From the IMG/VR virus record IMGVR_UViG_3300020159_000858, positions 1 through 27,570 of that record: 27,570 nt of DNA. One strand, given 5' to 3'. Source of the DNA: a virus. Shown here piece after piece: positions 8,058-24,287 of this stretch. The notes beneath the pieces are model-generated. The model was not told where the DNA came from. It did no database searches and saw only the letters and a list, made by a program, of their open reading frames with translations. A program made the translations under genes and the position numbers. Each line of letters starts with the position of its first letter. Position 1 is the stretch's first letter.

Positions 8058-8081
8058 TCAGAGATTGTTCAAAAAGAACTC

Positions 8082-8107
8082 AAAAAAGCACCTTCGGGTG
8101 CTTTTTT
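8082..8107 (+). terminator. Rho-independent terminator after the capsid gene
   Basis: AAAAAAGCACC (8082-8092), TTCG loop, GGTGCTTTTTT (8097-8107): an 11-bp perfect stem with the very stable UUCG tetraloop and a six-T tract. Because the flanks are A6 and T6, it could also work on the opposite strand. Confidence 0.95.
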
Positions 8108-8135
8108 GTTGGCTGTTAATTATTCCACCTGCACC

Positions 8136-8164: not shown

Positions 8165-11014
8165 ATGGCTATAATTACAACACCCGGTGCTGGCGTATCA
8201 CCATATCAGTCGTCTGATACCGATCCTACTGTTCTGCGAGCCGCTGCCGACGGAACAACAGTGTTAGCCAATGCAACCACTGCTGCTGCCACTGGCGCTA
8301 ACACATCAGTATATGTTGCTGGCCAAGCAGCAATAAACAGTTTGATCACTTCAGGACAATCGGGGGTATTCCAAGGTGCTAATGTAAATATCACATTAGA
8401 AGAGCAGAATTTTAACACCACCAATCAAGTTACATCAACTATTAACTATGCCTCGGGGGCTGCAGGATCCATTCAATACAACAATGGTGCAAATGGTTTT
8501 GCCGGCAGTGATTACTTTACATATACCAGTGGCAATGTAGTCACACCAGGTATCCGCACTGATGGATATTTCTACAGCAATGGAGCACCATTTACGGGTG
8601 GTGGTAATGCTGCTATTGGTAATTTTGTGTTCTCAGGCGATACAATGACTATTGCTCATGCCAACAGCACGTTGAGCGTAACTGGCAACGGCACTGGTAA
8701 TGTAAATATCAATGCCAATGGTAATACCTGGGCCTTTAACTCTGATGGTAATTTAACATTGCCTGGTAATACTTTTGATGTAAACTATGCCAACGGCAAT
8801 CCTGTATCAATTGCCAACACCGGCAATGTGACCTTCAGTAGCGAGATAGTGATAGGAACGGGCACAAGCAATCTCATCAGTGGATTGTATCTTGCACCCA
8901 GCAGTTCTAGCGCAAATGCCAATATGTACTTGCGAGTGCGGGGCAATATTGTCGACGAACCTACTCATATACATTTTGACACTGGCAACAATCAATACTA
9001 CAATCAGTTTATCGGCGATGACAACAAATATATACAATTGGCCAACACCGGCAATATTGTTATCAACAGCAATGATGCAGCGGGCAACTCGGCACAATGG
9101 ACCTTTGGCACAGATGGTAATCTAACCATACCGGGCAATATTATTGGTGCCAATGTGGTCAGTGCCAATGTATTCACAAATTTAATAGGTTCTGGAAATG
9201 TTCTTATAGCATCGTCAAGCAATCAAACTGGACCAATAGCAACTTGGACGTTTGATCCTGTATCAAATGGTACTGGTAACACAGTATTTCCTACAGGCAT
9301 GCATATTACCTCTGACGGAGCAGGCGGTACTAGGATGAGTCAAAATTCAGGTACTAGTAATATCGGATTAAGAATATCTGCTGGAAATACTAATGCATTC
9401 TCATCAATAGGATGGTCTCTAGACGAAATTCCAGGAATAGGTCCTGTTGCTGCAATAGCGTTTAATTTGCCAGTCAGCCAAAACAATGCACAGATATTAA
9501 CTGGAAATCTTTCAGCCACAAATTATAGATGGACATTTGACAACGGTGGCAACTTGACCTTGCCAAACGGTGCAGTGATAAACGACACTGTGGGCAACGC
9601 AGTGGCATTTGGTAAAACTGCTGGTAATACCGGTCAAGGTATAAGTTCGGTAGCAATTGGTTATGGTGCTGGGTTAACTGATCAAGGTAATCAAAGTGTT
9701 GCTATAGGAGAGAATGCCGGGGCTAATCAAGGATCAACGGCAGTAGCAATTGGACAAAATGCCGGCGGAGGTGTTGCCCATCAAAATGATGATGCAGTGG
9801 CTATTGGTCATAGTGCAGGTGAAGAAAATCAAGGAACACAAGCGATTGCGATTGGATTATATACTGGGCAAGTTGCTCAAGGGCTTAACTCTATAGCCAT
9901 CGGTGGCCTTGCAGGCCAAAGTGCCCAAGGCAACAATTCAATCATCATAAATGCCACCGGTAACACGCTGAATCAAACCACAGCCAACACATTCACAGTG
10001 GCTCCGGTCCGTAACGATGTGGCCAACATTGCTGAAGTCATGTTCTACAATGCCACCTCAAAAGAAATCACTTACGGCAACACCATAAGTGTTGCTGGTA
10101 ACATCACTGGTGGCAATTTATCAGCGATCAATCTAGTGATCAATAGCATCTCTAGTGATGATTCTACTTTTGTCACAATTGAAGATGGCGTTAATATTAC
10201 CACGGGATCAATATCTTCACAAGAAAATCTATCACTCACTGCCAACGCTTACACCTGGACATTTCGCAATGACGGTGTTGGCATAGTTCTGCCCTACAGT
10301 GCCACAATCAGGGACACCAATGGTGGTAGTTTGGTTATTGGTGTAGGTGCTGGCGCACTTGCTCTGGGCAACACAGCAGTGGCCATTGGCTATCAAGCCG
10401 CGTTTTTGGCACAAGGCAACAACTCAGTGGCCATAGGTAGAAGTGCCGGCGAAACTCAAGGTGAACAAGCTGTAGCAATTGGATTGAATGCTGGCAGGTC
10501 TCAGGGCAATTATGCTGTGGCAATTGGTAAATTTTCTGCCAACAGCAGTCAAGGTGAATACTCTGTGGCCATTGGTCCCAATGCTGGATTTGAGAATCAA
10601 TTATCCAATGCTGTATCAATTGGGTCTCAAGCTGGTGCGTCAAGTCAAGGTATCAATTCGGTTGCAGTTGGAGTCAGTGCTGCTTATAATACCCAAGGTA
10701 ATAATGCAGTAGCAATTGGTAACTCTGCCGCATATCTCTTACAAGGGTACAATTCGGTTGCAATTGGAGTCAATGCAGGTATTTACTATCTTGGAAATAG
10801 TTCAATTGCCATTGGTGCTAACGCTGGCAACAATCTGCAGGGCGATAATTCAATCGTATTCAATGCTACTGGTAGCAATCTAAGAAACACCACAGCCAAC
10901 ACATTTACTGTGAAACCTGTGCGTGGTGATAGCACAGCAAACTTAGTCGGCGGCGGATTCAAAGCAGTTTATTATAATTCATCTACTGGTGAGTTTGCTT
11001 ATAGCACCGACTAA
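8165..11014 (+). CDS. Fibre/adhesin with YadA-head-like (Hep_Hag) repeats
   Basis: This 949-residue protein is rich in Gly, Asn, Thr and Ser and almost free of Cys. Residues about 1-110 form a unique N-terminal part that probably anchors it to the virion. Residues about 110-470 are Asn/Gly-rich beta-repeats (GNLTLPGN, TGNVTF and similar). Two blocks of AVAIG-x-x-AG-type repeats lie at about 479-602 and 722-906; this pattern is the left-handed beta-roll of trimeric autotransporter heads (YadA). Each block is followed by a similar tail segment (TTANTFTVAPVR and TTANTFTVKPVR), so the C-terminal half looks duplicated. Such proteins are usually trimeric fibres binding a receptor. AAAGGGA at 8150-8155 supports the start. 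Whether it is a tail fibre or a head fibre cannot be told. Confidence 0.85.
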   Translation: MAIITTPGAGVSPYQSSDTDPTVLRAAADGTTVLANATTAAATGANTSVYVAGQAAINSLITSGQSGVFQGANVNITLEEQNFNTTNQVTSTINYASGAAGSIQYNNGANGFAGSDYFTYTSGNVVTPGIRTDGYFYSNGAPFTGGGNAAIGNFVFSGDTMTIAHANSTLSVTGNGTGNVNINANGNTWAFNSDGNLTLPGNTFDVNYANGNPVSIANTGNVTFSSEIVIGTGTSNLISGLYLAPSSSSANANMYLRVRGNIVDEPTHIHFDTGNNQYYNQFIGDDNKYIQLANTGNIVINSNDAAGNSAQWTFGTDGNLTIPGNIIGANVVSANVFTNLIGSGNVLIASSSNQTGPIATWTFDPVSNGTGNTVFPTGMHITSDGAGGTRMSQNSGTSNIGLRISAGNTNAFSSIGWSLDEIPGIGPVAAIAFNLPVSQNNAQILTGNLSATNYRWTFDNGGNLTLPNGAVINDTVGNAVAFGKTAGNTGQGISSVAIGYGAGLTDQGNQSVAIGENAGANQGSTAVAIGQNAGGGVAHQNDDAVAIGHSAGEENQGTQAIAIGLYTGQVAQGLNSIAIGGLAGQSAQGNNSIIINATGNTLNQTTANTFTVAPVRNDVANIAEVMFYNATSKEITYGNTISVAGNITGGNLSAINLVINSISSDDSTFVTIEDGVNITTGSISSQENLSLTANAYTWTFRNDGVGIVLPYSATIRDTNGGSLVIGVGAGALALGNTAVAIGYQAAFLAQGNNSVAIGRSAGETQGEQAVAIGLNAGRSQGNYAVAIGKFSANSSQGEYSVAIGPNAGFENQLSNAVSIGSQAGASSQGINSVAVGVSAAYNTQGNNAVAIGNSAAYLLQGYNSVAIGVNAGIYYLGNSSIAIGANAGNNLQGDNSIVFNATGSNLRNTTANTFTVKPVRGDSTANLVGGGFKAVYYNSSTGEFAYSTD
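9598..9970 (+). repeat. YadA-head-like repeat block 1 (coding)
   Basis: About eight degenerate repeats of roughly 14-17 residues with the core (S/A)VAIG-x-x-AG and a Q-G in the connecting turn, as in trimeric adhesin heads. Confidence 0.8.
10330..10880 (+). repeat. YadA-head-like repeat block 2 (coding)
   Basis: About twelve degenerate repeats of the same kind as at 9598-9970, ending in the same NS(I)-x-x-NATG and TTANTFTV segments, which indicates that the whole unit was duplicated. Confidence 0.8.
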
Positions 11015-11023
11015 GGATCACAC

Positions 11024-11092
11024 ATGGCACTAACAATTGGCACTGGACTCACGCAAAACTGGAACGCCGACCGAGCACGATTTGGGCTGTAA
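11024..11092 (+). CDS. 22-codon mini-ORF, possible gene remnant
   Basis: The ORF reads MALTIGTGLTQNWNADRARF followed by Gly-Leu and TAA. AAGGAT at 11013-11018 gives a reasonable ribosome binding site overlapping the preceding stop codon. The N terminus looks like the start of a phage beta-structural protein, cut short just before an exact sigma70 promoter and cargo genes. It may be the remnant of a larger gene broken by insertion of the glycosyltransferase cassette, or a short translated peptide with no function. I do not recognise a homolog. Confidence 0.4.
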   Translation: MALTIGTGLTQNWNADRARFGL

Positions 11093-11095
11093 TAA

Positions 11096-11124
11096 TTGAC
11101 ACACCCAACACATCCTGTTATAAT
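11096..11124 (+). promoter_or_regulatory. Exact consensus sigma70 promoter with extended -10
   Basis: TTGACA (11096-11101), 17-base spacer, TATAAT (11119-11124), with TG one base upstream of the -10 (11116-11117, extended -10). This is a perfect match to the bacterial housekeeping consensus. The expected start at about 11131 is only 2 bases before the ATG at 11133, so the mRNA would be essentially leaderless. Confidence 0.85.
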
Positions 11125-11132
11125 TACTGGAT

Positions 11133-12140
11133 ATGTTTGAACACTACTGGGGAGTGACTCCCGGAGATAAAAATCACTGGAATACTGCGGTAAGCCATCG
11201 AGCCCAATTTGAATATTTTGGGTTAGAAAAATTGTCAAACCAATTGATATTTTTTTATGATGGTCATTTGCGATTACATCAAGGTCCAGAATACGCAGTT
11301 GAACTGATAACCAGTGCTGCACGACAAACAGGAAGACTTCCTGTGTTATGTCTTGATGGCAATCCTTGCAATGCCAATCTAATACATCAAGAATTATGTA
11401 AACATCTAGATGTTAAAGATTTTTTCATATTTCATCCCGATATACGTCCAATCCTTAGTGATCAACCTAATTTAGCACCCTGGCCCAGCTGGTGGTTCTT
11501 CCAACTGGTAGAACACAATCATCAAGCAAATAAACTAAAAAAGCATAGAATAAGTTTCTTATCTGGCAGTTCTAGATATCACCGAGTAAAATTGTTACAC
11601 GACATAAAACCCTATGTGACTGATCAGGATGTGATAATTGTAAATCAGATTGGCAACTTCAAAGATCGGTTACCAGCAGGCTGGTGGGATGAATTGCCTT
11701 GGACCAACCGACCAGAATTTTTTGATTATGTTGGCACCAGCGGATATCCTCCAAAGATGGAACAAAACAATCATCCGGCGTTTGCAGCTTGTGTGAATAT
11801 CAATGGAGAAACCAGTGATAATGATCAAGTGTTGCTGAGTGAAAAAACTTGGAAAGCATATCGCAGCGGATGTTTGGTTGTTAATTACGGACCAGAACAA
11901 GCCACGCAAACACTTAAAGATCTTGGATTTGCAATTTGGGACGAATACGATCAAGTGGGCACACACGAACACAAAGCTGATCTCATAGTCAAACTTATGC
12001 AGCGAGATGATATCGCAGACCTATATCAAAAGAATATAGAAATGGTCAAACACAATGTCGCTTGGTTCAACAATCCAGCAGCTATACAAAAAGTTACAGA
12101 AATGGCTGTTTTAAAACTAGAAAACTTGTTATCACCATGA
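11133..12140 (+). CDS. Glycosyltransferase-like protein (GT10-like C-terminal motif)
   Basis: This 335-residue protein contains LLSEKTWKAYRSGCLVVNYG (about residues 233-252), resembling the (S/T)EK(T/L)-x-x-A-x-x-(S/A)G-x-x-P/V motif of GT10 fucosyltransferase-like and related phage glycosyltransferases, which binds the nucleotide sugar. It is preceded by FLSGSSRYHRVKLL (about 143-156), like a Rossmann-type strand-turn. The protein is soluble, with no signal peptide or membrane segment. The ATG is the first possible start after an in-frame stop and has no Shine-Dalgarno; it lies immediately after a consensus sigma70 promoter. The 3' end overlaps the next gene by ATGA, so the two are one operon. 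Donor and acceptor are unknown. Confidence 0.6.
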   Translation: MFEHYWGVTPGDKNHWNTAVSHRAQFEYFGLEKLSNQLIFFYDGHLRLHQGPEYAVELITSAARQTGRLPVLCLDGNPCNANLIHQELCKHLDVKDFFIFHPDIRPILSDQPNLAPWPSWWFFQLVEHNHQANKLKKHRISFLSGSSRYHRVKLLHDIKPYVTDQDVIIVNQIGNFKDRLPAGWWDELPWTNRPEFFDYVGTSGYPPKMEQNNHPAFAACVNINGETSDNDQVLLSEKTWKAYRSGCLVVNYGPEQATQTLKDLGFAIWDEYDQVGTHEHKADLIVKLMQRDDIADLYQKNIEMVKHNVAWFNNPAAIQKVTEMAVLKLENLLSP

Positions 12141-13249
12141 CAACAAATTATTGGTTATACGCTGACCCTAATGATGGTCAATCCAGCGAAATTATAAACA
12201 TAATAAAAGAACAATTTGCACAAGCGGTATTTTGCAGCAACTTTGATCAATTACTGACTAATATTGACAATGATCAATCACATGTGGTGTTGTTAATACA
12301 ACCCACTGATAGCAATCGTGCAGAAAAAATAAAAGAAATTACGTGGAACATTCAAATAAAAACACTTACATCTAAACCTATACAATGTGTATGGTTTGTT
12401 GACGAACTTTTTACTATTGGTAGAATATTAAATTGGGTATCTACTTTTTCAAACTTATTGATTGTCACTCCAGGACAACATACTTTTGGAATGCTACACT
12501 ATCCGTGGCTAACTTGGCAACATTGGCTGCAAGATGCTGTAGATGTATACCAGCATCCAACCATGCAAAATTATATCAATACACTTGATCTTACCACACC
12601 TAAACCTCAGTTGTTTGATGCGTTGTTAGGAGGTGAAAGACCTTATAGAACTTTACTGCATGATTGGATTGAAGAAGATTCAGTGTTGTCACCTCAAACT
12701 ATTATGTCTTACTATGGCGGTAAAACCACTAGACCAAGAGAAATATTAGAGCCTGACATGATTGTGCCTGTACCAATAACACATTTTGCAATTCCATGTA
12801 AATTTCACGATATTGTTACTCGAACAGGACTAATACCACCGGTCAGTGTGTACCAACAAACTGCTTACTCGGTAGTTACTGAAACTAATGCTCAGCACAA
12901 CTACATATTTTTTACTGAAAAAATAGCCAGAATCATGGTCTGCAGACGATTGTTTATAGTATTGTCAAGCTACAAGTATCTACATTACCTTAGAGAATCA
13001 GGTTTTAGAACTTTTGGTCATATCATAAACGAAAGTTACGATTTAGAAGTAGATGATGTACGCCGGTGGAGAATGGCATTTGAACAGATGCAAGCACTAG
13101 CTGCAATGGATCAAAGTTGGGTGCTAGAACAAATACAACCCATAGTAGAACATAACTTACAAGTGTTGATGAACACTGATTGGCATAAAAAAATGTCGAT
13201 CGAAGTTAATAAAATTCTAACTGCAAGATTAAATTTTAAAAAATCCTAA
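12137..13249 (+). CDS. Glycosyltransferase-like protein, second of a pair
   Basis: At 370 residues when started at the ATG at 12137, which overlaps the preceding stop (ATGA); a longer frame from 12062 would run far into the previous gene and is rejected. The C-terminal part holds YIFFTEKIARIMVCRRLFIV (about residues 254-273) followed by YLHYLRESGFRTFGHIINES, a pattern found in many phage proteins in which FxTEKxxxPI leads to a GF.TF segment. It corresponds to the EKT motif of the upstream gene, so both may be distant relatives. No membrane segment is visible. The 3' end overlaps the convergent gene by 21 bases. A sugar-transfer role is inferred from motif and neighbours. Confidence 0.55.
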   Translation: MTTNYWLYADPNDGQSSEIINIIKEQFAQAVFCSNFDQLLTNIDNDQSHVVLLIQPTDSNRAEKIKEITWNIQIKTLTSKPIQCVWFVDELFTIGRILNWVSTFSNLLIVTPGQHTFGMLHYPWLTWQHWLQDAVDVYQHPTMQNYINTLDLTTPKPQLFDALLGGERPYRTLLHDWIEEDSVLSPQTIMSYYGGKTTRPREILEPDMIVPVPITHFAIPCKFHDIVTRTGLIPPVSVYQQTAYSVVTETNAQHNYIFFTEKIARIMVCRRLFIVLSSYKYLHYLRESGFRTFGHIINESYDLEVDDVRRWRMAFEQMQALAAMDQSWVLEQIQPIVEHNLQVLMNTDWHKKMSIEVNKILTARLNFKKS

Positions 13250-14380
13250 GAATTTGTGCATCTTGTTGATCACACTATCCCAGTCGCCCATCACTGGTTG
13301 ACGATATAGTCTGGCACTAGGATACCAAGGCGAATCATCACGCTTGAGCAACCAACGCCAGCAGTTACCATACGCATTCAACGGAATCCAAACAGGACGA
13401 CCCATTGCTCCTGCTAAGTGTGCATTAGCAGTATCAACTGAGATCACAAGATCCAAGTGATGCATAAGTCCTGCTGTGTCTGCAAAATTAGTGATAGTGC
13501 CTGGAAAACATTCACCACCGGCGGCTGTAATCACAGCTGATTCTTCTTCAGTGGAATCAACAGTCAAATTGATCCATTGATGTTCAGGATTACGACGGAT
13601 CAATTCGGCCATCTTTTCCACAGGCATGGCCTTGTGATTGTGTATCCATGAATCTTTTCTTCCTGCCCAACATACACCAATTCTCATGCGAGTTTTATGA
13701 CCTAATCTGTCAGCCCACTCTTTTGCTTTGGCAGGACTAGCAGCAACATATTGTAATTGATGTGCTAGATTGTCTAGTTTTAATCCTATCACTCGTGGTA
13801 TGCTCATCATTGGAATCCAGTAATCAAATTCGCCAAGGTCTTCACCAGATTCGTAAATGCCAACAATACTGTCGGACACAGTAGGAAACAATGCTTTAAC
13901 ACCTGCACTGAGAACTAGTTTTATTTTGGCTCCAGTACTAATTAAATTGGCTGAAAATCTTAAAAACTGAATCTGATCACCAAGTCCTTGCTCGCCTATT
14001 AACAGTATGATTTTATCTTTGAGGTCTTGTCCGGTCCATTCTGGTTGCGACAATTTTGGTTTGACACCAGCCATGTGTTCATAACGCCACCGTGCTTCAT
14101 AGTAAGGCCATCCACGTTCGAAGTCACCTTTGAGCAAGTAAGCCACAGCTAGATTGAATTCGGCAGTGACGTTGGCGGGATCAATCTCATGTGCAGCATG
14201 TAAGAATGGAATGGCACGCTCAGGATAGCCCATTTCTCTCAGCACATTGCCGTAGTTGTTGAAAGCAGCACCGTGATTGAAGTCCTGCCCAAATATTTGT
14301 GCATAGCAGTTCAATGCTTGGTCGGGTTGGTGATCAGCGCGATGTTGGTTGCCTTGCGCCAGTAGTTGTTCAGTGTTCAT
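13229..14380 (-). CDS. TPR protein with GT9/heptosyltransferase-like domain
   Basis: The preferred start is the ATG at 14380 (383 residues); a GTG at 14398 would add six residues and has no better ribosome binding site. The N-terminal 110 residues are tetratricopeptide repeats (GAAFNNYGNVLREMGYPERA, then AEFNLAVAYLLKGDFERGW). The rest resembles the GT-B fold of GT9: GEQGLGDQIQFLRF (about 129-142) is the N-domain loop, and VISVDTANAHLAGAMGRPVW (about 311-330) the C-domain donor site, followed by the WRWLLKRDDSPWYPS stretch. TPR-GT9 fusions are common beside bacterial flagellin or surface-glycan loci and in marine phages. It may add sugars to a virion or host surface protein. The gene is on the opposite strand to its neighbours. 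Confidence 0.8.
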   Translation of the reverse strand: MNTEQLLAQGNQHRADHQPDQALNCYAQIFGQDFNHGAAFNNYGNVLREMGYPERAIPFLHAAHEIDPANVTAEFNLAVAYLLKGDFERGWPYYEARWRYEHMAGVKPKLSQPEWTGQDLKDKIILLIGEQGLGDQIQFLRFSANLISTGAKIKLVLSAGVKALFPTVSDSIVGIYESGEDLGEFDYWIPMMSIPRVIGLKLDNLAHQLQYVAASPAKAKEWADRLGHKTRMRIGVCWAGRKDSWIHNHKAMPVEKMAELIRRNPEHQWINLTVDSTEEESAVITAAGGECFPGTITNFADTAGLMHHLDLVISVDTANAHLAGAMGRPVWIPLNAYGNCWRWLLKRDDSPWYPSARLYRQPVMGDWDSVINKMHKFLGFFKI

Positions 14381-14385
14381 ATAGA

Positions 14386-14393
14386 TATTTAAG
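14386..14393 (-). promoter_or_regulatory. Weak late-promoter-like motif (CTTAAATA)
   Basis: CTTAAATA on the minus strand lies 5 bases before the ATG at 14380. It differs from NATAAATA at one position and would again give a leaderless mRNA. Confidence 0.2.
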
Positions 14394-14427
14394 AACACTA
14401 GGTGTGAGACCCAAAATAAGTGTTCGC

Positions 14428-14435
14428 CATAAATA
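14428..14435 (+). promoter_or_regulatory. Putative T4-type late promoter (CATAAATA)
   Basis: CATAAATA lies in the divergent region, 88 bases before the ATG at 14524, with a sensible leader length. No upstream + strand promoter can read through from the opposing gene, so a promoter is needed here; this is the best candidate. Confidence 0.6.
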
Positions 14436-14443
14436 AGTCATGT

Positions 14444-14476
14444 ACGCAATACTGCGTCTTATGCGGTTTAACCCGC
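14444..14476 (+). other. Two small stem-loops in the 5' leader
   Basis: ACGCA-ATAC-TGCGT (14444-14457) and GCGG-TTTAAC-CCGC (14463-14476) lie between the late promoter motif and the ribosome binding site AAGGAG (14511-14516). They may stabilise the mRNA. Confidence 0.4.
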
Positions 14477-14523
14477 CGCGTAGAAGCTAGAACCTTCATC
14501 GGACTTCTTTAAGGAGAAAACAA

Positions 14524-15351
14524 ATGGGACGTCCTCTAAAAATACAAAAATTCAGTTTAAACACTGGCGTTGGTAGCCCTGGCGCAAACACCCCTGTGGA
14601 TCTTGCTTATCCACCATTCAGCGCACTTACCAATCCAGCATACAATCAGCCCACACAGACGCTGGACTCGGCCCAGTTCTTGGGTGTGGTAGGTGGATCG
14701 CCTCCTACCAGCCAGCCCAGTGCCACATACCCTGTGGTCACAGCATTTGTGAATATCACACTGGCCAATGGTTCATCTACCTTTGCCTTTTCCGGATCAT
14801 ACGCAGGCCAGATTATACGCCAAAAAGGCAGCCACAAATATCTAGTGGTATACACAGGTGATACCACTGCTGATGGCGCTTTCATTGTTGGGCAGTCATA
14901 TCAGATTGTTGCTCTTGGCACAACCAACTGGCAATCAGTGGGCACCGGAACAGGTACAGTTGCAGCAGGTGATATTTTCACAGCCACAGCAGCAGATGGT
15001 GGCGGCAACGGTACTGCATACCCAGTTGGCGTGTGTGTGTTGACCAATGATACTTCACCAGCAACAGGTCTCATGGCCATCGGCTACGAATCAGGCGACA
15101 GTGCAGCAGCCACAGCCAGCAATCTTACCAACAAGCGAGTGCGTGACTGGGTAGGAACTGCCGGTGACTACAGCGATGCCAACCTGGGTGAAGTCTCTTA
15201 CACTGATGAACTTTTCTATATTGCCAACTTCTTCACAGACGAAGGCGGTGTTGCACAGAGTGGATCAGAAACAGAAACTGCTACAGAAACAGTTAACGGA
15301 GCACCAGCAGGATTTATTCCGCTGGCAGTTATCAACAACGCCACTTCTTAA
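14524..15351 (+). CDS. Putative virion structural protein
   Basis: This 275-residue protein is rich in Gly, Thr, Ala and Ser and lacks basic clusters. Residues about 119-160 hold the pattern FIVGQSYQIVALGTTNWQSV followed by a G-x-x-F-x-AT segment and GNGTA. This short beta-module recurs in many marine phage structural proteins. The N terminus MGRPLKIQKF and the C-terminal VINNATS are unremarkable. A strong AAGGAG at 14511-14516 and an 88-base leader with a late promoter motif suggest high late expression. Position before the fibre gene suggests a virion surface or decoration protein, but no family is assigned with confidence. Confidence 0.75.
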   Translation: MGRPLKIQKFSLNTGVGSPGANTPVDLAYPPFSALTNPAYNQPTQTLDSAQFLGVVGGSPPTSQPSATYPVVTAFVNITLANGSSTFAFSGSYAGQIIRQKGSHKYLVVYTGDTTADGAFIVGQSYQIVALGTTNWQSVGTGTGTVAAGDIFTATAADGGGNGTAYPVGVCVLTNDTSPATGLMAIGYESGDSAAATASNLTNKRVRDWVGTAGDYSDANLGEVSYTDELFYIANFFTDEGGVAQSGSETETATETVNGAPAGFIPLAVINNATS

Positions 15352-15366
15352 AGTTTAGCAACCCTG

Positions 15367-15399
15367 AATCCTCTCAGATACATACTGAGAGGATTTTTT
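15367..15399 (+). terminator. Terminator hairpin containing the next gene's ribosome binding site
   Basis: AATCCTCTCAG (15367-15377) pairs perfectly over 11 bp with CTGAGAGGATT (15385-15395) around a 7-base loop; with the T run to 15399 it is a good rho-independent terminator. The 3' arm contains GAGAGG (15387-15392), the apparent Shine-Dalgarno for the ATG at 15400, so read-through mRNA would have it hidden. Confidence 0.85.
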
Positions 15400-15987
15400 A
15401 TGACCATAGCATTTGTATTGGGCAATGGACAAAGCCGAGTCGGCGTAGATCTAGTGCAACTTCAGCAACTGGGACCCATCTACGGCTGCAATGGGCTGTA
15501 CAGAGACTGGCAACCTGACTGCTTGGTGGCCACAGATCGTCCTATTGCTGAAGCTATACAACGCTCAGGATACAGCAAAAAACACAGATTTTACACCCGC
15601 AGACCCTTGCCTGATATGGGAGCCCAAGTTGTTCCTAGAAAATATCACGGCAACAGTTCTGGACCCATAGCCTGCGCTATTGCTGCTTTAGACGGGCACG
15701 ATCGCATTTATCTGTTGGGGTATGACATGGGACCTAGCCCGGCTATGAGATTCAACAATGTGTATGCTGGTACCGAATTTTACAAAAGTCCAGATGCAGC
15801 ACCCACATACACAGGAAATTGGATACGACAATTGGTCTCTGTAGCTCAAGATTTTTCTAAAACTCAATTTATCCGTGTTTGCGGACCCACTAGCGCCGAA
15901 GTCAAAGAGTTTAAAAATATTGGAAATTTTGATCACATAGACATCAAACTGTTCTGTCATCGGCTGGACTCCAACCACGGGCTATAG
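15400..15987 (+). CDS. DUF115/sialyltransferase-like glycan enzyme
   Basis: This 195-residue protein starts with FVLGNGQSRVGVDLVQLQQL (residues 5-24), then IYGCNGLYRDWQPDCLVATD (about 28-47) and HDRIYLLGYDMGPS (about 104-117). The G-N-G-x-S loop, the conserved GCNxLYRD and the PDxLVATD segment are shared by phage and bacterial proteins related to the DUF115 (motility accessory factor) and CST-type sialyltransferase families, which use nucleotide-activated sugars. It is shorter than most GT42 enzymes, so the link is by motif only. Its ATG directly follows a T tract, and its Shine-Dalgarno lies inside the terminator stem. It sits between two structural genes, fitting a role in decorating one of them or the host surface. 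Confidence 0.55.
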   Translation: MTIAFVLGNGQSRVGVDLVQLQQLGPIYGCNGLYRDWQPDCLVATDRPIAEAIQRSGYSKKHRFYTRRPLPDMGAQVVPRKYHGNSSGPIACAIAALDGHDRIYLLGYDMGPSPAMRFNNVYAGTEFYKSPDAAPTYTGNWIRQLVSVAQDFSKTQFIRVCGPTSAEVKEFKNIGNFDHIDIKLFCHRLDSNHGL

Positions 15988-16006
15988 GCTCGAAACGACT
16001 TTGATA

Positions 16007-16035
16007 AGAGTCTGGTAAATACAATCAGAGACTCT
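16007..16035 (+). other. Inverted repeat enclosing a late promoter motif
   Basis: AGAGTCT (16007-16013) and AGACTCT (16029-16035) form a 7-bp inverted repeat around GGTAAATACAATCAG, ending 4 bases before the ATG at 16040. It could be an operator-like site or an mRNA hairpin. Confidence 0.4.
16014..16021 (+). promoter_or_regulatory. Putative late promoter motif (GGTAAATA) for the collagen-like fibre
   Basis: GGTAAATACAATCA (16014-16027) matches the 14-mer before the 8165 fibre gene at 13 of 14 positions. The ATG at 16040 has no strong Shine-Dalgarno. Confidence 0.45.
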
Positions 16036-16039
16036 ACAA

Positions 16040-19000
16040 ATGACACAATACACCATTGACATCGGCGCGACACCAGATGACGGACAAGGTGATCCGTTAC
16101 GTACCGCGTTTGACTATACCAATTTAAACTTTGATCAGATTTTTGCAGCTGGTCCAGTGTTGAGTAATGTGGCCATTGCCAACAACACTATTCAAACCAT
16201 AAACAGCAATGGTAATCTGATACTAGCACCCAACGGAATTGGCAAAATACAAGCCAACGCCGCAGTGGTTCCCGGCTTGGATAATGTATATAATCTAGGT
16301 AGTCCAAGTCAACGGTTTAATTCAATCTATGTGGGCACCGGCGGACTAAACATAACTGATATTTTTGTTTCTGGTAATGTCTCGGCTAACAATATCAATT
16401 CTACTGGCATTGTGTCATCTGCTGGTAATGTAGTCAGCGGTGCTACTGTGTCGGGTACCACTTTATTAGTATCCAGTGCCACAGCCACAGGAAATATTAC
16501 TGCTAGTTATTTTATTGGTAACGGTAGTCAACTCACCGATACCCCACCAGGTGTACAAGGTATCCAAGGGGTACAGGGCACACAAGGTATCCAAGGAGTT
16601 ACAGGTGCTCAGGGCATCTATGGTACACAAGGCGTTCAAGGTGTTCAAGGAACAACAGGTACACAAGGCATCCAAGGAGTTACAGGTGCTCAGGGTATCT
16701 ATGGCACACAAGGCGTTCAAGGCGTTCAAGGAACAACAGGTACACAAGGCATCCAAGGCGTTCAAGGAACAACAGGTACACAAGGCATCCAAGGCGTTCA
16801 AGGAACAACAGGTACACAAGGTATCCAAGGCGTTCAAGGAACAACAGGTACACAAGGCATCCAAGGAGTTCAGGGCACACAAGGTACACAAGGCATCCAG
16901 GGTGAAACAGGTACACAAGGCACTCAAGGAGTTCAAGGTGAAACAGGTACACAAGGTAGCCAAGGTGAAACAGGTACGCAAGGTATCCAAGGCGAAATAG
17001 GCACACAAGGCGTCCAGGGTGAAATAGGCACACAAGGCATCCAGGGCGAAATAGGCACACAAGGCGTCCAAGGTGAAACAGGTACCCAAGGCATCCAAGG
17101 TGAAATTGGTACGCAAGGAGTTCAGGGCGTCCAGGGCGAAATAGGCACACAAGGCGTTCAAGGTGAAATTGGTACACAAGGCATTCAAGGCGTCCTTGGA
17201 GCACAGGGAGTTCAAGGTGTTCAAGGTGCTATTGGCACACAAGGAGTCCAAGGCGTACAAGGAGTCCAAGGCATACAAGGGTTACAAGGACTTGGAGATC
17301 GATACGAAACAACTAGTAGCACCAGTCTGACAATCAGCAATGCAACCAAGAGTCTAACTGTTAGCACAGGGTTAAATTACAGTGCTGGACAAAATACAAT
17401 TATTGCATATGATGGATCCAACTATATGCAAGGCAACACTGTGTCTTACGATGCGGGCACCGGTGCATTGGTTGTAGATGTTACTGTATCAGTTGGTGGC
17501 CCGGGCCCGTATTCTAGTTGGCAAGTAAATCTTTCAGGCGTTGAAGGACCTGCAGGAGCACAAGGTATCCAAGGCACACAAGGAGTTCAAGGCACACAAG
17601 GAGTTCAAGGCACACAAGGTGTACAGGGAGAAATTGGAGCACAAGGTGTTCAGGGTGAAATTGGAGCACAAGGTGTTCAGGGTGAAATTGGAGCACAAGG
17701 CATCCAAGGAACACAAGGCATCCAAGGTGAAATAGGTACACAAGGCATCCAGGGTGAAATTGGAGCACAAGGTATCCAAGGCGAAATAGGCGCCCAAGGT
17801 ATCCAAGGTGAAATTGGAGCACAAGGTGTTCAGGGTGAAATTGGAGCACAAGGTATCCAAGGCGAAATAGGCGCCCAAGGCATACAAGGTGAAATAGGCA
17901 CACAAGGTATCCAAGGCGAAATAGGCGCCCAAGGTATCCAAGGTGAAATAGGCACCCAAGGTATCCAAGGCGAAATAGGTACACAAGGCATACAAGGTGA
18001 AATAGGCACACAAGGTATCCAAGGCGAAATAGGTACACAAGGTATCCAAGGCGAAATAGGCACACAAGGTATCCAAGGTGAAATAGGCGCCCAAGGCATA
18101 CAAGGTGAAATAGGCACACAAGGCACAACAGGTACACAAGGCACACAAGGAGTTCAAGGTGGAATTGGTGGGCAAGGAGTCATTGGGTCTCAGGGAGTAC
18201 AAGGTACTCAGGGCATCCAGGGTATACTGGGCACTCAAGGTGTTCAAGGTATGCAAGGCGTTCAAGGTACAACGGGCATACAAGGTGAAACAGGTACACA
18301 AGGCATCCAAGGTGAAATAGGCACCCAAGGCATACAAGGCGAAATAGGTACACAAGGCATACAAGGCGAAATTGGTACACAAGGCGTTCAAGGAGAAATA
18401 GGCACCCAAGGTATCCAAGGTGAAACAGGTACACAAGGTATCCAAGGTGAAATTGGAGCACAAGGCGTTCAAGGAGAAATAGGCACCCAAGGTATCCAAG
18501 GTGAAACAGGTACACAAGGTATCCAAGGTGAAATTGGAGCACAAGGCATACAAGGAGAAATAGGCACCCAAGGTATCCAAGGCGAAATAGGCACCCAAGG
18601 CATCCAAGGTGAAATAGGCACACAAGGTATCCAAGGTGAAATAGGCACCCAAGGTATACAAGGTATTGTTGGCCCTGGTAATATCATAAACGCCACTGAT
18701 AATACCAGTACCACCACACTGTATCCTGTGATGGTTGGTGCTGCTGGCAGCGGGCAAGTGGCCAATGTCACTACCGGCGGATTTGTATTCAATGCAGCAA
18801 CCAACACATTGTCCGTAACAAGCAATGTCACCGCCAACAACGGCATGTTTACCACAATTGTAAACACAGCCAGCTTCACTGGCGGATTAGTAAGTGTCAC
18901 AGGCAATGTCACAGCTAATAATGTTTTAGCAACCACGATCAGCAACGCAGCCAGCTTCACTGGCGGACTTGTATCAGTTACAGGCAATGTCACTGCTAAT

Positions 19001-21628
19001 AATGGCATGTTTACCACGATTGTAAATACAGCCAGCTTTACTGGAACCATCGTATCAGTCACAGGCAATGCCACTGCTGGCAATGTCAACACCAATAGAG
19101 TTGTAGGCACTGCTCTTGCACTTTCCAGCACCGGCAATCTAAATCTAAACGCTGTTGGCGGAAATGTAGTTTTGAGTGCCAACACATACATCAACAATCT
19201 TGCCAGTCCTGCACAGAATGCAGATGCAGCAACCAAAGAGTATGTTGATAACATTGCCACAACCGGTATTACCTTCCACGAACAAGTTTATGCAGCCACA
19301 GTGACCACACTGGAGGTAGCTACCAGTGGTAACATAACTTATACACAACCCAACGGCGCAGGTAACGGCGTAGGTGCCACACTTACCACAACAGGCACAT
19401 ACAATCTCATCGATACTGCCAACATCCAGACTGTGGGTAGACGAGTATTGGTTCAAAATCAAGCCAATGCTGTTCAAAACGGTATCTATACCTATGCCAA
19501 CACCACCGCTATCGTTCGCTCCACAGATGCTGATGAATACGGAGCAAACAGCACAGTATCAATTAGTATCAACGACTACTTCTTTGTATCCAATGGTAAT
19601 GTCAATGCCGGTGCTGCGTTCATCGTAAATGCCCCTGCAGGAACAATCACATTTGGTACCAGCAACATCACTTTTGCTCAGTTCAGCAGCAGCCAAGTTT
19701 ACACAGCCAATACCGCTGCTGGTCTGACTTTGGTAGGAACTGTATTCAGCACCAAGGTTGACAGCACCACCACTGCATTTGATGCAGGTGGTAATATAAT
19801 CGTCAAGGCCAGTGCTAATCTAACCACACCCAACATTGGTGCTGCCACAGGTACATCATTAAGTGTCACAGGTAACATCTCAGCAACCGGCGGCACATTT
19901 GGATCAGGCAATATTAGCACAACTGGTAATGTTCAAGCTGGCTTCTTTGTTGGTGCTGTAGCAGCAACTACGGTCAGTGCATCGGGTAATGTCACTGCTA
20001 ACAATGGCATGTTTACTAACATTGTGAACGTGGCAAGTCACACAGGTACATTGGTAAGTGTAACAGGCAATATCACTGCTGCTGGAGCCACACTTGGTGC
20101 GGGCAATCTTTCCACCACTGGTAACATCAGTGCTGGTTATTACTTTGGTAACGGAGCATTGCTCACAGGTATAATCACTTCTGTCAGCAACATCAACAAC
20201 GGCACAAGTAATATCACAGTGGTCAGTTCGGGAGGTAATATTGCTGTGGGCATTGGCGGAACCAGCAATGTGGCTGTGTTTGCTACCACAGGTGAATATG
20301 TCACTGGATTGATCAGTGCTACAGGCAATGTGATTGCCGCTGGTGTAGCTGCATCGGGCAACATATCAGCTACCGGCAATGTCCAAGGTGGTAACGGTGT
20401 ATTCACCACCATAGTGAGTGCAGCAAGTCACACAGGTACATTGGTAAGTGTCACAGGCAATATAACAGCCAACAATGGCCAGTTTACTACGATAGTAAAC
20501 ACTGCCAGTTTCACTGGTGGATTAGTAAGTGTGACTGGTAATGTTACTGCCGGCAATGTAAACACCACAGTGGTCACCGGTGCCACAATGACTATCAGCA
20601 CTAATGCCGGCAATGCTAATATTGTATTCACACCAAATGGAACAGGCAATGTGAACACCGGTGCCAACATAAGCGTTACCGGTAATGTCAGAGCAGCTGG
20701 ATATACCTATGCTAACGGTGTGGCCGTAGCAGGATCTGGTGCTCAAGGTACAACAGGTACCCAGGGTATTACTGGAGCACAAGGTATTACCGGAACACAA
20801 GGTGCTGTAGGTACCCAAGGCGCTGTGGGCACCCAAGGTACAACTGGTGCACAAGGCGCAACTGGTGCACAAGGCGCAACAGGCGCAGGTGGCGGCACAG
20901 GAGCACAAGGCATAACCGGAACACAAGGCGTGCAAGGTCGTCAAGGCATAACAGGCGCACAAGGTGCTGTAGGTACCCAAGGCACAACCGGAGCACAAGG
21001 CATAACAGGCGCAGGTGGCGGCACAGGAGCACAAGGCGCAACAGGCGCAGGTGGCGGCACAGGAGCACAAGGCGCAACAGGCCCAAGCACTGCTATAAAT
21101 GCCACCAATGTTACAACTGGAACATTTTATCCTGTGATGGTGGCTGCTACTGGTAGCAATCAAACTCCGTCGGCAAACACAACCGCCTTGTCTTTTAACG
21201 CAGCCACAGGACGACTAACTACTACCTCCACCAACGCACTATATGCTGACTTGGCTGAAATGTATGCAGCTGATTCACCATACAATCCAGGAACAGTGTT
21301 GGTATTTGGTGGCAATCAAGAAGTCACTATAAGCACCACAAGCCATGATAATAAAGTAGCAGGTGTGGTATCTACTATACCTGCACACGTTATGAATTCT
21401 GGACTACAAGGAGAGTTTACTATAGAATTGGCATTGGTAGGCCGTGTTCCTGTAAGCGTGATTGGCAACATCTCTGCAGGTGATCGAGTTGTTACAAGCA
21501 ATCGAGCAGGTGTGGCAGAAGCTTTGGATATGGCGCTCTATCAACCAGGTGTGATAATTGGTAAAGCCTTGCAAAGCTACACAGGCAACGGTATTGGCGT
21601 GATTGAAGTGGTGGTGGGCAGATTATAA
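16040..21628 (+). CDS. Giant collagen-like fibre protein
   Basis: This 1862-residue protein probably forms a long trimeric virion fibre. Residues 1-170 are an N-terminal beta-domain (attachment), including [16 protein letters not shown]. Three unbroken Gly-X-Y blocks follow: residues 171-419 (83 triplets), 503-877 (125) and 1567-1680 (38). Between blocks 1 and 2 lies an insert of about 83 residues ([14 protein letters not shown] onward). Between blocks 2 and 3 lie 27-residue repeats ([20 protein letters not shown] type) and a tail-fibre module with AATKEYVD and [19 protein letters not shown] (about 1130-1160). The last 130 residues (from [20 protein letters not shown]) resemble a C-terminal domain of marine phage fibres. 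The collagen triplets have virtually no proline or lysine. Neighbouring sugar and side-chain enzymes may modify it. Confidence 0.9.
16550..17296 (+). repeat. Collagen-like block 1, 83 Gly-X-Y triplets
   Basis: Unbroken in-frame 9-base periodicity (triplets [15 protein letters not shown] and others) with larger 36-base and 27-base units. No proline or lysine within the block. Confidence 0.95.
17546..18670 (+). repeat. Collagen-like block 2, 125 Gly-X-Y triplets
   Basis: Mainly 27-base units encoding GEIGTQGIQ or GEIGAQGIQ; unbroken from GPA (residue 503) to GIV (residue 877). Proline occurs only in the first triplet. Confidence 0.95.
18827..19069 (+). repeat. Three tandem 81-bp coding repeats
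   Basis: Copies start at 18827, 18908 and 18989 with exact 81-base spacing, each encoding 27 residues like [20 protein letters not shown]. Further copies occur at 19991-20071 and, as a pair, at 20381-20542. Confidence 0.85.
20381..20542 (+). repeat. Two further tandem 81-bp repeats
   Basis: Units at 20381 and 20462 match the 18827-19069 family; the unit at 19991-20071 is a sixth, single copy. All are in frame. Confidence 0.75.
20738..21079 (+). repeat. Collagen-like block 3, 38 Gly-X-Y triplets
   Basis: Unbroken triplets of different flavour from blocks 1 and 2 (GAQ, GAT, GIT, GTT, GAV and a recurring GAGGGT pair), with no Glu; one Arg at GRQ. Confidence 0.9.
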
Positions 21629-21635
21629 TTTGGTC

Positions 21636-21650
21636 TGCCGTGGCACGGCA
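21636..21650 (+). other. Palindromic hairpin between fibre and fusion genes
   Basis: TGCCGTG-G-CACGGCA is a perfect palindrome with one central base. CATAAATG (21649-21656) overlaps its end and precedes the ATG at 21662. There is no T run, so it is not a standard terminator. Confidence 0.45.
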
Positions 21651-21656
21651 TAAATG
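21649..21656 (+). promoter_or_regulatory. Weak late-promoter-like motif (CATAAATG)
   Basis: One mismatch to NATAAATA; 5 bases before the ATG at 21662. The same 8-mer also occurs inside the 8165 gene near 9944, so specificity is poor. Confidence 0.2.
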
Positions 21657-21661
21657 TTAGT

Positions 21662-24286
21662 ATGACATTAAGCCAACAAATCTATCAAAATGGTCTGACC
21701 AAACCTGTGATCGCAGCAGGCGGCACTATACATCCGTTGATAATACCCGCAGAACTTACCAACGGAACTGGGTTAATGAATCCCAGCATCTTCATCGACG
21801 GCGATCGAATCCTAGTAAATCTGCGTCATGTGAACTACACACTTTGGCACAGTGAAAACAAAAAATTTGAACACAGATACGGCCCCTTGCAATATTTGCA
21901 CCCAGAAAACGATCACCATCTCCGAACTTGGAATTACTTGCTCACGATGAATTCGGATATGACCATAGCTACCACACAGGCTATAGACACATCCGCTCAT
22001 GATGTAGACCCAATCTGGACATTTGTGGGCCTAGAAGATGCCAGGATCCAACGCTGGAATGGTAGACTTTGGATCACCGGCGTGCGTAGAGATACTACCA
22101 CAAACGGTCAAGGACGCATGGAACTCAGTGAGATTTCAATAACCGATACTGGTGTGCGAGAGATCCTGCGTAAACGCATCCCTGCTCCGGGTGCTGATGA
22201 TACCTACTGCGAAAAAAACTGGATGCCTGTGCTGGATCAACCCTACACTTATGTAAAATGGGCCAATCCTACAGAAGTGGTTCGTTACGATCTTGACACC
22301 GGCACTACCACCATTATACATCTTGATCCAACTCAAATCATACCCGGTGTTCCAGATTTCCGTGGAGGTAGCCAAGTGATACCTTACGGCGACAACTATA
22401 TAGCCTTGATACACGAAGTCAATTTGTTCAAGAGCGAAGCTGGCGAAAAAGACGCTACCTACAAACATAGATTCCTAATGTGGGATAAGAATTGGAACAT
22501 GTTGGCCTACACGGATGCATTCAGTTTCATGAAAGCAGACATTGAATTCTGTACCGGTGCTGCTTGGTACAACAACGAATTACTGCTGACATTTGGATTC
22601 CAAGACAACGCTGCATTCATATTAAAGATGCCACGAGCATGTGTGGATCAATTTATGGCTGAGGCTAACAGTATTCCTCGAGTTCCTACTATGACCACAC
22701 TGGATGGTGTTGAACACGAGTTTGACTGGGGAGTGGCAGCTAACAACAAATGGTTCCATAGAACTATTATGCAAGAGATATTTGTGGATAATACATATCA
22801 ACGGTTCTTTGAAGTAAAACCCGGAGATGTGGTTGTAGATATTGGTGCCAGTGCTGGCCCATTTACATGGAGCATAGTAACAAAGCAACCCAGCAAAGTT
22901 ATCTGTCTCGAACCACACAAAAAACTCTACCCTACTTTGGTAAAAAATGTCAGCTATACCGGACTAGATGTTACCACTATAAACCGTGCCCTAGGGCATT
23001 CAGACGGATTGAACTATCTAGCAGGACTGTATGATGAAAACAAAGTGTCACACAGCGACGGCACTGATGGTATCGTGTTAGAGACTATCAAGTTTAGCAC
23101 ACTGGTACAACAACAGAAACTCACACACATAGACTTCCTCAAGATGGATTGTGAAGGCGGTGAATATGACTTCTTCACAGATGAAAATCGTGAATGGATA
23201 CACAACAATGTGCGTAAGATAGCTATGGAGATACATCTAGCCACTCCGGAGCAAAAAGAAAAATTCCGTAAATTCAGAGACACTTACTTGCGTGAATTTA
23301 CAAACTTCCATGCACTGAGTATTGACTATGTGGACATCAAATGGTCTGTGTTTGATGACTGGTTTGTTGATCATTACTCTGCTTTTATGTTGTACATCGA
23401 TAATCAGATAGCACCACGAGACAAGAAAAAATGGCAGCACTACCCCGCGCCCACACTTGAAATCACAACTATCATTCCTGAAAAAGGATGTGTGGTTGAT
23501 TGTGTGTTCTGCCCACAACGCACCCTGGAAGAAGTATACAAAGGCACCAGGATCTTGGCGTTGGATGACTACAAGAGCATGATCGACAAGGTGCCTACAG
23601 ATGTGCGTATCACTTTTGCTGGATTTACAGAGCCGTGGATGAACAAATACTGCACAGACATGGTTCTGTATGCACATGATCAAGGGCATCCTGTGAGCAT
23701 TTTTACCACAGGTGTGGGTGTGAGCATTGAAGATATGGAAGCCATAGTACATATACCATTTGCCGGCAACCCTAACGGCGGTTTCGTATTGCACTTGCCC
23801 GACGCAGAGATGTTGGCACGTCATCCCATCACTCCGGGTTATATCAAAACTCTGGAATGGTTCCGAGACAATCATCACAGAATAAAGAACTTTTCTAAAA
23901 TGAGTATGGGTGCCGAACTACATCCCAGTATCCGACACATTTTTGATTCAGCACCTAGTTATGCCATGTGGAGCAGAGCCGGCAACTTGTTCCGTGAAGC
24001 AGTGGCCAAACCACAACTGATCACACTACGTGATCGTTGGAACGCAATCACACACGAAGGACCAAAGACCTGTGGATGCGTAGAAGGATTGTATCACAAT
24101 GTGTTGCTGCCCAACGGAGATGTGAGTCTGTGCTGTATGGATTATGGCCTAGATCATATCATTGGAAACTTGCATGAACAGTCATATGAAGATGTGATTC
24201 CTCGAGATCAAACTTGCTTCACGCTGTGCAACTCTTGTGAAAATGCTACAGATCCTAAAGAAAAAGTCATAAACTTTGTAAAATAA
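21662..24286 (+). CDS. Beta-propeller / FkbM methyltransferase / radical SAM-SPASM fusion
   Basis: This 874-residue protein has three parts. Residues about 1-350 look like a five-bladed propeller of the glycosidase/phosphorylase type: GLEDARIQRWNGRLWITGVR (about 122-141), then EKNWMPV and a second PDFRGGSQVIPYGDNYIALI (about 228-247). Residues about 370-570 are an FkbM-type SAM methyltransferase with VVDIGASAGP (391-400) and FLKMDCEGGEYDF (Cys497). Residues about 595-874 are a radical SAM domain with Cys610, Cys614 and Cys617 in CX3CX2C spacing, and a SPASM-like tail with Cys804, 806, 824, 825, 852, 856 and 859. No signal peptide is seen. No good Shine-Dalgarno precedes the ATG. The next gene follows after one base. 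Substrate unknown; fibre or host glycan is inferred from context. Confidence 0.8.
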   Translation: MTLSQQIYQNGLTKPVIAAGGTIHPLIIPAELTNGTGLMNPSIFIDGDRILVNLRHVNYTLWHSENKKFEHRYGPLQYLHPENDHHLRTWNYLLTMNSDMTIATTQAIDTSAHDVDPIWTFVGLEDARIQRWNGRLWITGVRRDTTTNGQGRMELSEISITDTGVREILRKRIPAPGADDTYCEKNWMPVLDQPYTYVKWANPTEVVRYDLDTGTTTIIHLDPTQIIPGVPDFRGGSQVIPYGDNYIALIHEVNLFKSEAGEKDATYKHRFLMWDKNWNMLAYTDAFSFMKADIEFCTGAAWYNNELLLTFGFQDNAAFILKMPRACVDQFMAEANSIPRVPTMTTLDGVEHEFDWGVAANNKWFHRTIMQEIFVDNTYQRFFEVKPGDVVVDIGASAGPFTWSIVTKQPSKVICLEPHKKLYPTLVKNVSYTGLDVTTINRALGHSDGLNYLAGLYDENKVSHSDGTDGIVLETIKFSTLVQQQKLTHIDFLKMDCEGGEYDFFTDENREWIHNNVRKIAMEIHLATPEQKEKFRKFRDTYLREFTNFHALSIDYVDIKWSVFDDWFVDHYSAFMLYIDNQIAPRDKKKWQHYPAPTLEITTIIPEKGCVVDCVFCPQRTLEEVYKGTRILALDDYKSMIDKVPTDVRITFAGFTEPWMNKYCTDMVLYAHDQGHPVSIFTTGVGVSIEDMEAIVHIPFAGNPNGGFVLHLPDAEMLARHPITPGYIKTLEWFRDNHHRIKNFSKMSMGAELHPSIRHIFDSAPSYAMWSRAGNLFREAVAKPQLITLRDRWNAITHEGPKTCGCVEGLYHNVLLPNGDVSLCCMDYGLDHIIGNLHEQSYEDVIPRDQTCFTLCNSCENATDPKEKVINFVK

Positions 24287-24287
24287 C

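What the first reader, a model, noticed from the sequence alone, without database searches (positions are those of the whole stretch)
11096..11132. Perfect consensus sigma70 promoter in a late-gene region
TTGACA-17-TATAAT plus an extended -10 TG is a full match, rare even in bacterial genomes, and it sits between a late fibre gene and two GT-like genes. It implies expression by the unmodified host polymerase, possibly early in infection or in a lysogen-like or carrier state, in contrast to the late motifs before structural genes. The predicted start leaves about 2 bases before the ATG.
Basis: partly seen in the sequence, partly recalled or inferred. Interest (0 to 1): 0.7.

Follow-up and report, generated by a model that had tools for sequence, protein, structure and literature searches.

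The report
Strong host-type promoter driving phage cargo
A virus of bacteria carries, in the middle of its late structural genes, two extra genes with a textbook-perfect host-type promoter almost touching the first start codon, so the host's own polymerase can probably read them early; this turns out to be a recurring design in its relatives.

Summary
In detail: TTGACA (11096-11101), 17-bp spacer with TG at 11116-11117, TATAAT (11119-11124), ATG at 11133. It is the only such site in the window; shuffles expect 0.02. It is conserved in a 157-kb relative (G001): 36 of 40 bp identical, no change in -35, TG or -10.

It lies at a cargo site between the fibre gene and a convergent GT9-type gene. Relatives L283/L336 hold a different operon there, with its own perfect TTGACA-17-TATAAT and ATG 6 nt after the -10. 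So the promoter probably arrived with moron-like cargo.

Consensus sigma70-type promoters are the usual non-late class in this lineage: G001 has 25 forward and 0 reverse, so "rare" does not hold here. Eight of the 25 abut a start codon without a Shine-Dalgarno. The late-type motif TAAATA shows 4-5 nt spacing to ATG, unlike PA5oct, T4 and OC. Leaderless mRNA is therefore a likely lineage habit.

Host-polymerase, probably early, expression is supported by inference only; no RNA was tested. Nothing supports a lysogen or carrier state. The two genes match no glycosyltransferase family. No terminator separates them from the fibre gene, so late read-through is also likely.

The parts
11024..11092 (+). 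22-codon ORF MALTIGTGLTQNWNADRARFGL*, in-frame internal-deletion remnant of a LamG-domain (PF13385) structural gene that is 245 aa in relative G001
   Evidence: start and end match the two ends of L002 1663-2400; Laminin_G_3 E 9e-17 in the intact gene; intact 244-aa version in L279
11096..11101 (+). -35 element TTGACA
   Evidence: identical in G001
11116..11117 (+). extended -10 TG
   Evidence: identical in G001
11119..11124 (+). -10 element TATAAT
   Evidence: identical in G001
11131..11132 (+). predicted transcription start and 2-nt leader (inferred, not measured)
   Evidence: 7 nt after the -10; 8-nt spacing from -10 to ATG conserved in G001; no Shine-Dalgarno
11133..12140 (+). cargo gene 1, 335 aa, orphan family, function unknown
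   Evidence: homologues: G001 84%, L004 partial 82%, L279 46%; no Pfam, PHROG, NCBIfam or PDB family
12137..13249 (+). cargo gene 2, 370 aa, orphan family, ATGA overlap with gene 1 (one operon)
   Evidence: homologues: G001 78%, L004 71%; no family match
13229..14398 (-). convergent GT9 + TPR gene that bounds the cargo slot; overlaps gene 2 by 21 bp
   Evidence: PF01075 E 1e-7 and TPR; homology with L283 resumes exactly at 13229
8165..11014 (+). fibre-like structural gene upstream of the slot, preceded by late-type motif GGTAAATACA
   Evidence: YadA_head repeats; upstream motif

Best explanation
The site is a functional promoter for the host's sigma70-type (housekeeping) RNA polymerase. It belongs to a two-gene moron-like cargo operon (11133-13249) sitting at a variable slot between the fibre gene and a convergent GT9 gene in a T4-type phage. 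It should be active as soon as DNA enters, like the phage's other sigma70-type promoters, and makes an almost leaderless mRNA (2-nt leader) translated from a 5'-proximal AUG without a Shine-Dalgarno. Late read-through from the fibre transcript probably adds a second wave. Shown by sequence: the elements, their conservation, the lineage-wide promoter class, the cargo slot, and the lack of SD and late motif. Inferred: polymerase recognition, timing, start site, leaderless translation.
For: Unique perfect match, 0.02 expected. Conserved in G001: 36/40 bp identical with all 14 core bases unchanged, against 65% identity at 4-fold sites of the same genes, P = 3e-4. G001 has 25 sigma70-type sites in the main coding direction and 0 in reverse, with 1 in the reversed-sequence control; contigs G002-G008 show the same one-strand pattern with 0 controls. 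A matrix built without this site or its G001 copy still picks it as the only hit above 10 bits in the window (14.0 against 6.9 for the next + strand site). A different cargo operon in the same slot of L283/L336 has its own perfect promoter with ATG 6 nt after the -10; window and L283 homology stops at 11018 and resumes at 13229. In the second subclade the GT9 gene itself has TTGACA-17-TAAAAT about 30 nt upstream. ATG 6-8 nt after the -10 in 8 of 25 G001 promoters (4.3% expected per site), all without SD. Late motif to ATG at 4-5 nt: 50/207, against 32/3001 for anagrams. T4 early promoters are described as excellent sigma70 matches and lie before novel ORFs in T4-like phages (PMC2988021, PMC1524935).
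Against: No RNA data and no known host. Built without them, the matrix gives the G001 copy of this promoter only 8.7 bits, rank 37 in G001, so it lacks the TTGACC...GCTATAATA..ACAT hallmarks of the commonest class. The 46% homologue in L279 has no sigma70 promoter, so the gene can do without one. Seeds for the matrix were chosen by consensus, so only strand bias and controls, not the match itself, are independent. A 2-nt leader assumes the usual 7-nt spacing.
Confidence: 0.72

Rival explanations
1. The cassette is expressed late only, by read-through from the fibre transcript; the sigma70 site is an inert relic of the gene's bacterial or phage donor.
For: No terminator between fibre and cassette. 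The L279 homologue of gene 1 has no sigma70 promoter and starts 11 nt after the preceding gene's stop. The commonest class in G001 has a different consensus.
Against: All 14 core bases are kept in G001 while 4-fold sites in the genes are 65% identical; start-codon spacing is kept; a second, unrelated cargo in the slot has the same design.
Confidence: 0.15
2. The promoter gives constitutive expression in a long-lived carrier or lysogen-like state, as in serotype-converting prophages.
For: The promoter needs only host polymerase; the genes are accessory; GT9 and methyltransferase neighbours could modify surfaces or virion proteins.
Against: The T4-type head genes suggest a lytic phage; the same promoter class lies before many ordinary phage genes; no test for integrase or repressor was made.
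Confidence: 0.05
3. It is a typical T4-type early promoter recruited inside the phage, not one that came with the cargo.
For: G001 has many sigma70-type promoters; one other G001 site shares TTGACA...CCTGTTATAAT.
Against: It differs from the lineage's dominant TTGACC...GCTATAATA type; in L283 the promoter lies just inside the cargo breakpoint.
Confidence: 0.08

Closest known systems
T4-type early promoters before novel ORFs (T4, RB49, RB69, 44RR, Aeh1; PMC2988021, PMC1524935)
   Same: Excellent sigma70 -35/TGn/-10 match in a T4-type phage, in front of accessory ORFs; late genes use a separate TAAATA-type motif
   Different: The -35 is the plain host consensus rather than the T4 GTTTAC type; it sits inside the structural gene block; it abuts the AUG
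Morons (accessory genes carried with their own promoter and often terminator; definition as in PMC2147016)
   Same: Extra genes in a variable slot with their own host-type promoter, lower G+C (35-41% against about 45%)
   Different: No terminator of their own found; in a T4-type phage, not a prophage
PeSL mobile cassettes of T4-type phages (Arbiol et al. 2010, doi 10.1093/gbe/evq006; cited in PMC4177764, not readable here, content recalled)
   Same: Early promoter associated with gene shuffling at variable sites
   Different: No stem-loop at the promoter
Leaderless mRNAs of phages such as lambda cI from PRM (from general knowledge)
   Same: AUG at or within 2-3 nt of the 5' end, no SD
   Different: Here a lineage-wide pattern in both sigma70-type and late-type promoter classes, by prediction only

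Membership tests
sigma70-type promoter | -35 TTGACA, 16-18 bp spacer, -10 TATAAT, optional TGn | tested here: met
   12/12 with 17 bp and TG
sigma70-type promoter | initiates transcription with host holoenzyme | not testable with these tools
   needs RNA or in vitro transcription
T4-type early promoter | belongs to a strand-biased genome-wide class distinct from late promoters | tested here: met
   G001 25 forward, 0 reverse; no TAAATA at 11014-11133
T4-type early promoter | shares the extended consensus of the lineage's main class | tested here: not met
   leave-out scores 14.0 (window) and 8.7 (G001 copy, rank 37), main class up to 38; TTGACA not TTGACC, no ACAT
T4-type early promoter | active immediately after infection | not testable with these tools
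   no RNA data
moron | accessory gene at a variable site absent from relatives | tested here: met
   slot 11018-13229 holds other cargo or none in L276-L291, L283, L336
moron | own promoter | tested here: met
moron | own terminator | tested here: not met
   no + strand terminator-like site between 11492 and 13522; often but not always present in morons
PeSL cassette | stem-loop next to an early promoter | tested here: not met
   no terminator-like site; fold z 0.86
leaderless gene | start codon within a few nt of the transcription start and no SD | tested here: inconclusive
   predicted +1 2 nt before ATG, no SD, spacing conserved; start site not measured
   no Pfam, PHROG, NCBIfam or PDB match; AlphaFold pLDDT 39 and 44, too poor to search

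The most novel reading that the evidence does not exclude
A clade of uncultured T4-type phages runs a substantial share of its genes on leaderless mRNAs from both of its promoter classes (sigma70-type and late TAAATA-type), and has a plug-in cargo slot in the late block whose cargoes bring perfect host promoters fused to the start codon, so that they are expressed early wherever they land.
Probability: 0.5. Interest if true: 0.6.

Novelty: new variant of a known kind. Interest (0 to 1): 0.42.

Why it matters
It shows how accessory genes inserted into a phage's late structural block can escape late control: they bring a host-type promoter joined directly to the start codon. The pattern in the lineage predicts leaderless translation on a scale that, to my knowledge, has not been described for T4-type phages; a limited search of open-access papers found no such report. 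If so, it says something about the unknown host's ribosomes and gives a testable signature.

Tried and rejected
PeSL cassette: no stem-loop at the promoter. Bacterial homologue of gene 1 by a genome scan: none. Homologues of genes 1 and 2 in isolated phages: none. Glycosyltransferase identity by profiles and PDB: none; the two genes are not detectably related to each other (hhalign probability 0.3%). Two AlphaFold runs too poor to use. T4 gp55-type late sigma in G001: not found by phmmer, phrog_234 or phrog_12791, but the control genomes also gave nothing, so absence is not shown. Host inference by tRNA: none found. Leaderless late spacing as a general T4-type trait: rejected, absent in PA5oct, T4 and OC.

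Full report
What is there. The window is a fragment of a T4-type phage: portal gp20, prohead protease and major capsid gp23, with the capsid protein 64-65% identical to Vibrio phage 2.275.O and Pseudomonas phage PA5oct. The site is exactly as described: TTGACA 11096-11101, 17 bp, TG at 11116-11117, TATAAT 11119-11124, ATG 11133. It is the only perfect match in 27.6 kb; 2 of 100 shuffles have one. It fills the 40-bp gap between a 22-codon ORF and the ATG.

The neighbourhood. PA5oct has the same order of head genes followed by an accessory region, a fibre gene, and reverse-strand NUDIX and tail genes, so the window's 8165-25472 is a variable region. The 22-codon ORF is an in-frame deletion remnant of a 245-aa LamG-domain gene that is intact in the relative G001. 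The two genes downstream overlap by ATGA and form one operon; they have no Pfam, PHROG, NCBIfam or PDB match, so 'GT-like' is not established. Only the convergent gene at 13229-14398 is a GT9 protein.

Conservation. G001 (IMG/VR 3300027741_000023, 157 kb) has the same operon and the same promoter. Of the 40 bp before the ATG 36 are identical and the four changes lie in the spacer and next to the ATG, none in -35, TG or -10. In the two genes, 4-fold degenerate sites are 65% identical, which gives P = 3e-4 for 36 of 40.

A promoter class, not an oddity. G001 has 25 sigma70-type sites at 17-bp spacing in the main coding direction, none in reverse, and one in the reversed-sequence control. The commonest form is TTGACC-GTATTG...TCGGCTATAATA..ACAT; seven further contigs hit by that form have 1 to 14 TTGAC(A/C)-17-TATAAT sites each, all on one strand, with 0 controls. 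PA5oct and Ochrobactrum phage OC also have strand-biased consensus sites (22/7 and 1/12), though PA5oct's control is 6/7. G001 genes behind such sites include a DNA-metabolism exonuclease. A matrix that leaves out this promoter and its G001 copy still picks it as the best in the window at 14.0 bits; the G001 copy scores only 8.7. So it is a plain-consensus outlier of the class. In T4, early promoters are strong sigma70 sites (PMC2988021), and in T4-like genomes they often precede novel ORFs while late ones precede conserved late genes (PMC1524935).

A cargo slot. Sixty-eight loci with the GT9 gene allow comparison. Homology between the window and L283 or L336 runs through the fibre 3' end to 11018 and resumes at 13229. 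Between these points L283/L336 carry an unrelated operon (309 aa; a 590-aa ATP-grasp protein matching cyanophycin synthetase models at 2e-77, below the curated cut-off; a Methyltransf_24 protein), preceded by its own perfect TTGACA-17-TATAAT with ATG 6 nt after the -10. Other loci have LamG genes, a HAD gene or an HNH endonuclease. L279 has a 46% homologue of gene 1 without a sigma70 promoter. In the more distant subclade the GT9 gene has TTGACA-17-TAAAAT about 30 nt upstream. The promoter therefore looks like part of the cargo.

Leaderless design. With a start 7 nt after the -10, the leader is 2 nt. Eight of 25 G001 promoters have an ATG 6-8 nt after the -10 opening an ORF of at least 40 codons (4.3% expected per site), and none of these has an SD; for 141535 a second, SD-preceded ATG lies 24 nt downstream, so that one may not be leaderless. 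The late-type motif TAAATA has ATG 4-5 nt downstream in 13 of 75 cases in G001 and in 50 of 207 in the GT9 loci, against 32 of 3001 for anagrams; loci are related, so these are not independent events. PA5oct, T4 and OC show no such peak.

Verdict. The most likely reading is a host-polymerase promoter of a moron-like cargo operon in a T4-type phage, probably early, probably leaderless, with late read-through in addition. The lysogen or carrier idea has no support. Timing, start site and leaderless translation remain inferred.

Noticed in passing
G001 (L150-L157) and loci L275-L342; window 2063 and 3879: Late-type motif TAAATA is followed by the start codon at 4-5 nt far more often than anagram controls, absent in PA5oct, T4 and OC: predicted leaderless late genes in this clade.
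   Followed up: partly
window 11024-11092 against L002 1663-2400: A LamG-domain structural gene reduced to 22 codons by an exact in-frame internal deletion (669 bp), with its SD kept.
   Followed up: partly
L283/L336, slot opposite the GT9 gene: Phage operon with a cyanophycin-synthetase-like ATP-grasp protein (590 aa) and a methyltransferase.
   Followed up: partly
window 16040-21628, 21662-24286 and 24288-25472: Long collagen-like fibre (G-x-Q repeats) next to an FkbM methyltransferase/radical SAM-SPASM fusion and a TPR-DUF6445 protein: possible modification enzymes for the fibre.
   Followed up: no
L002 24-1166: Structural-looking protein with a weak Hint (self-splicing-like) domain, just before a HAD_SAK_2 gene.
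   Followed up: no
window 8081-8108: Strong hairpin with T-tracts between gp23 and the fibre gene, a likely (bidirectional) terminator.
   Followed up: no
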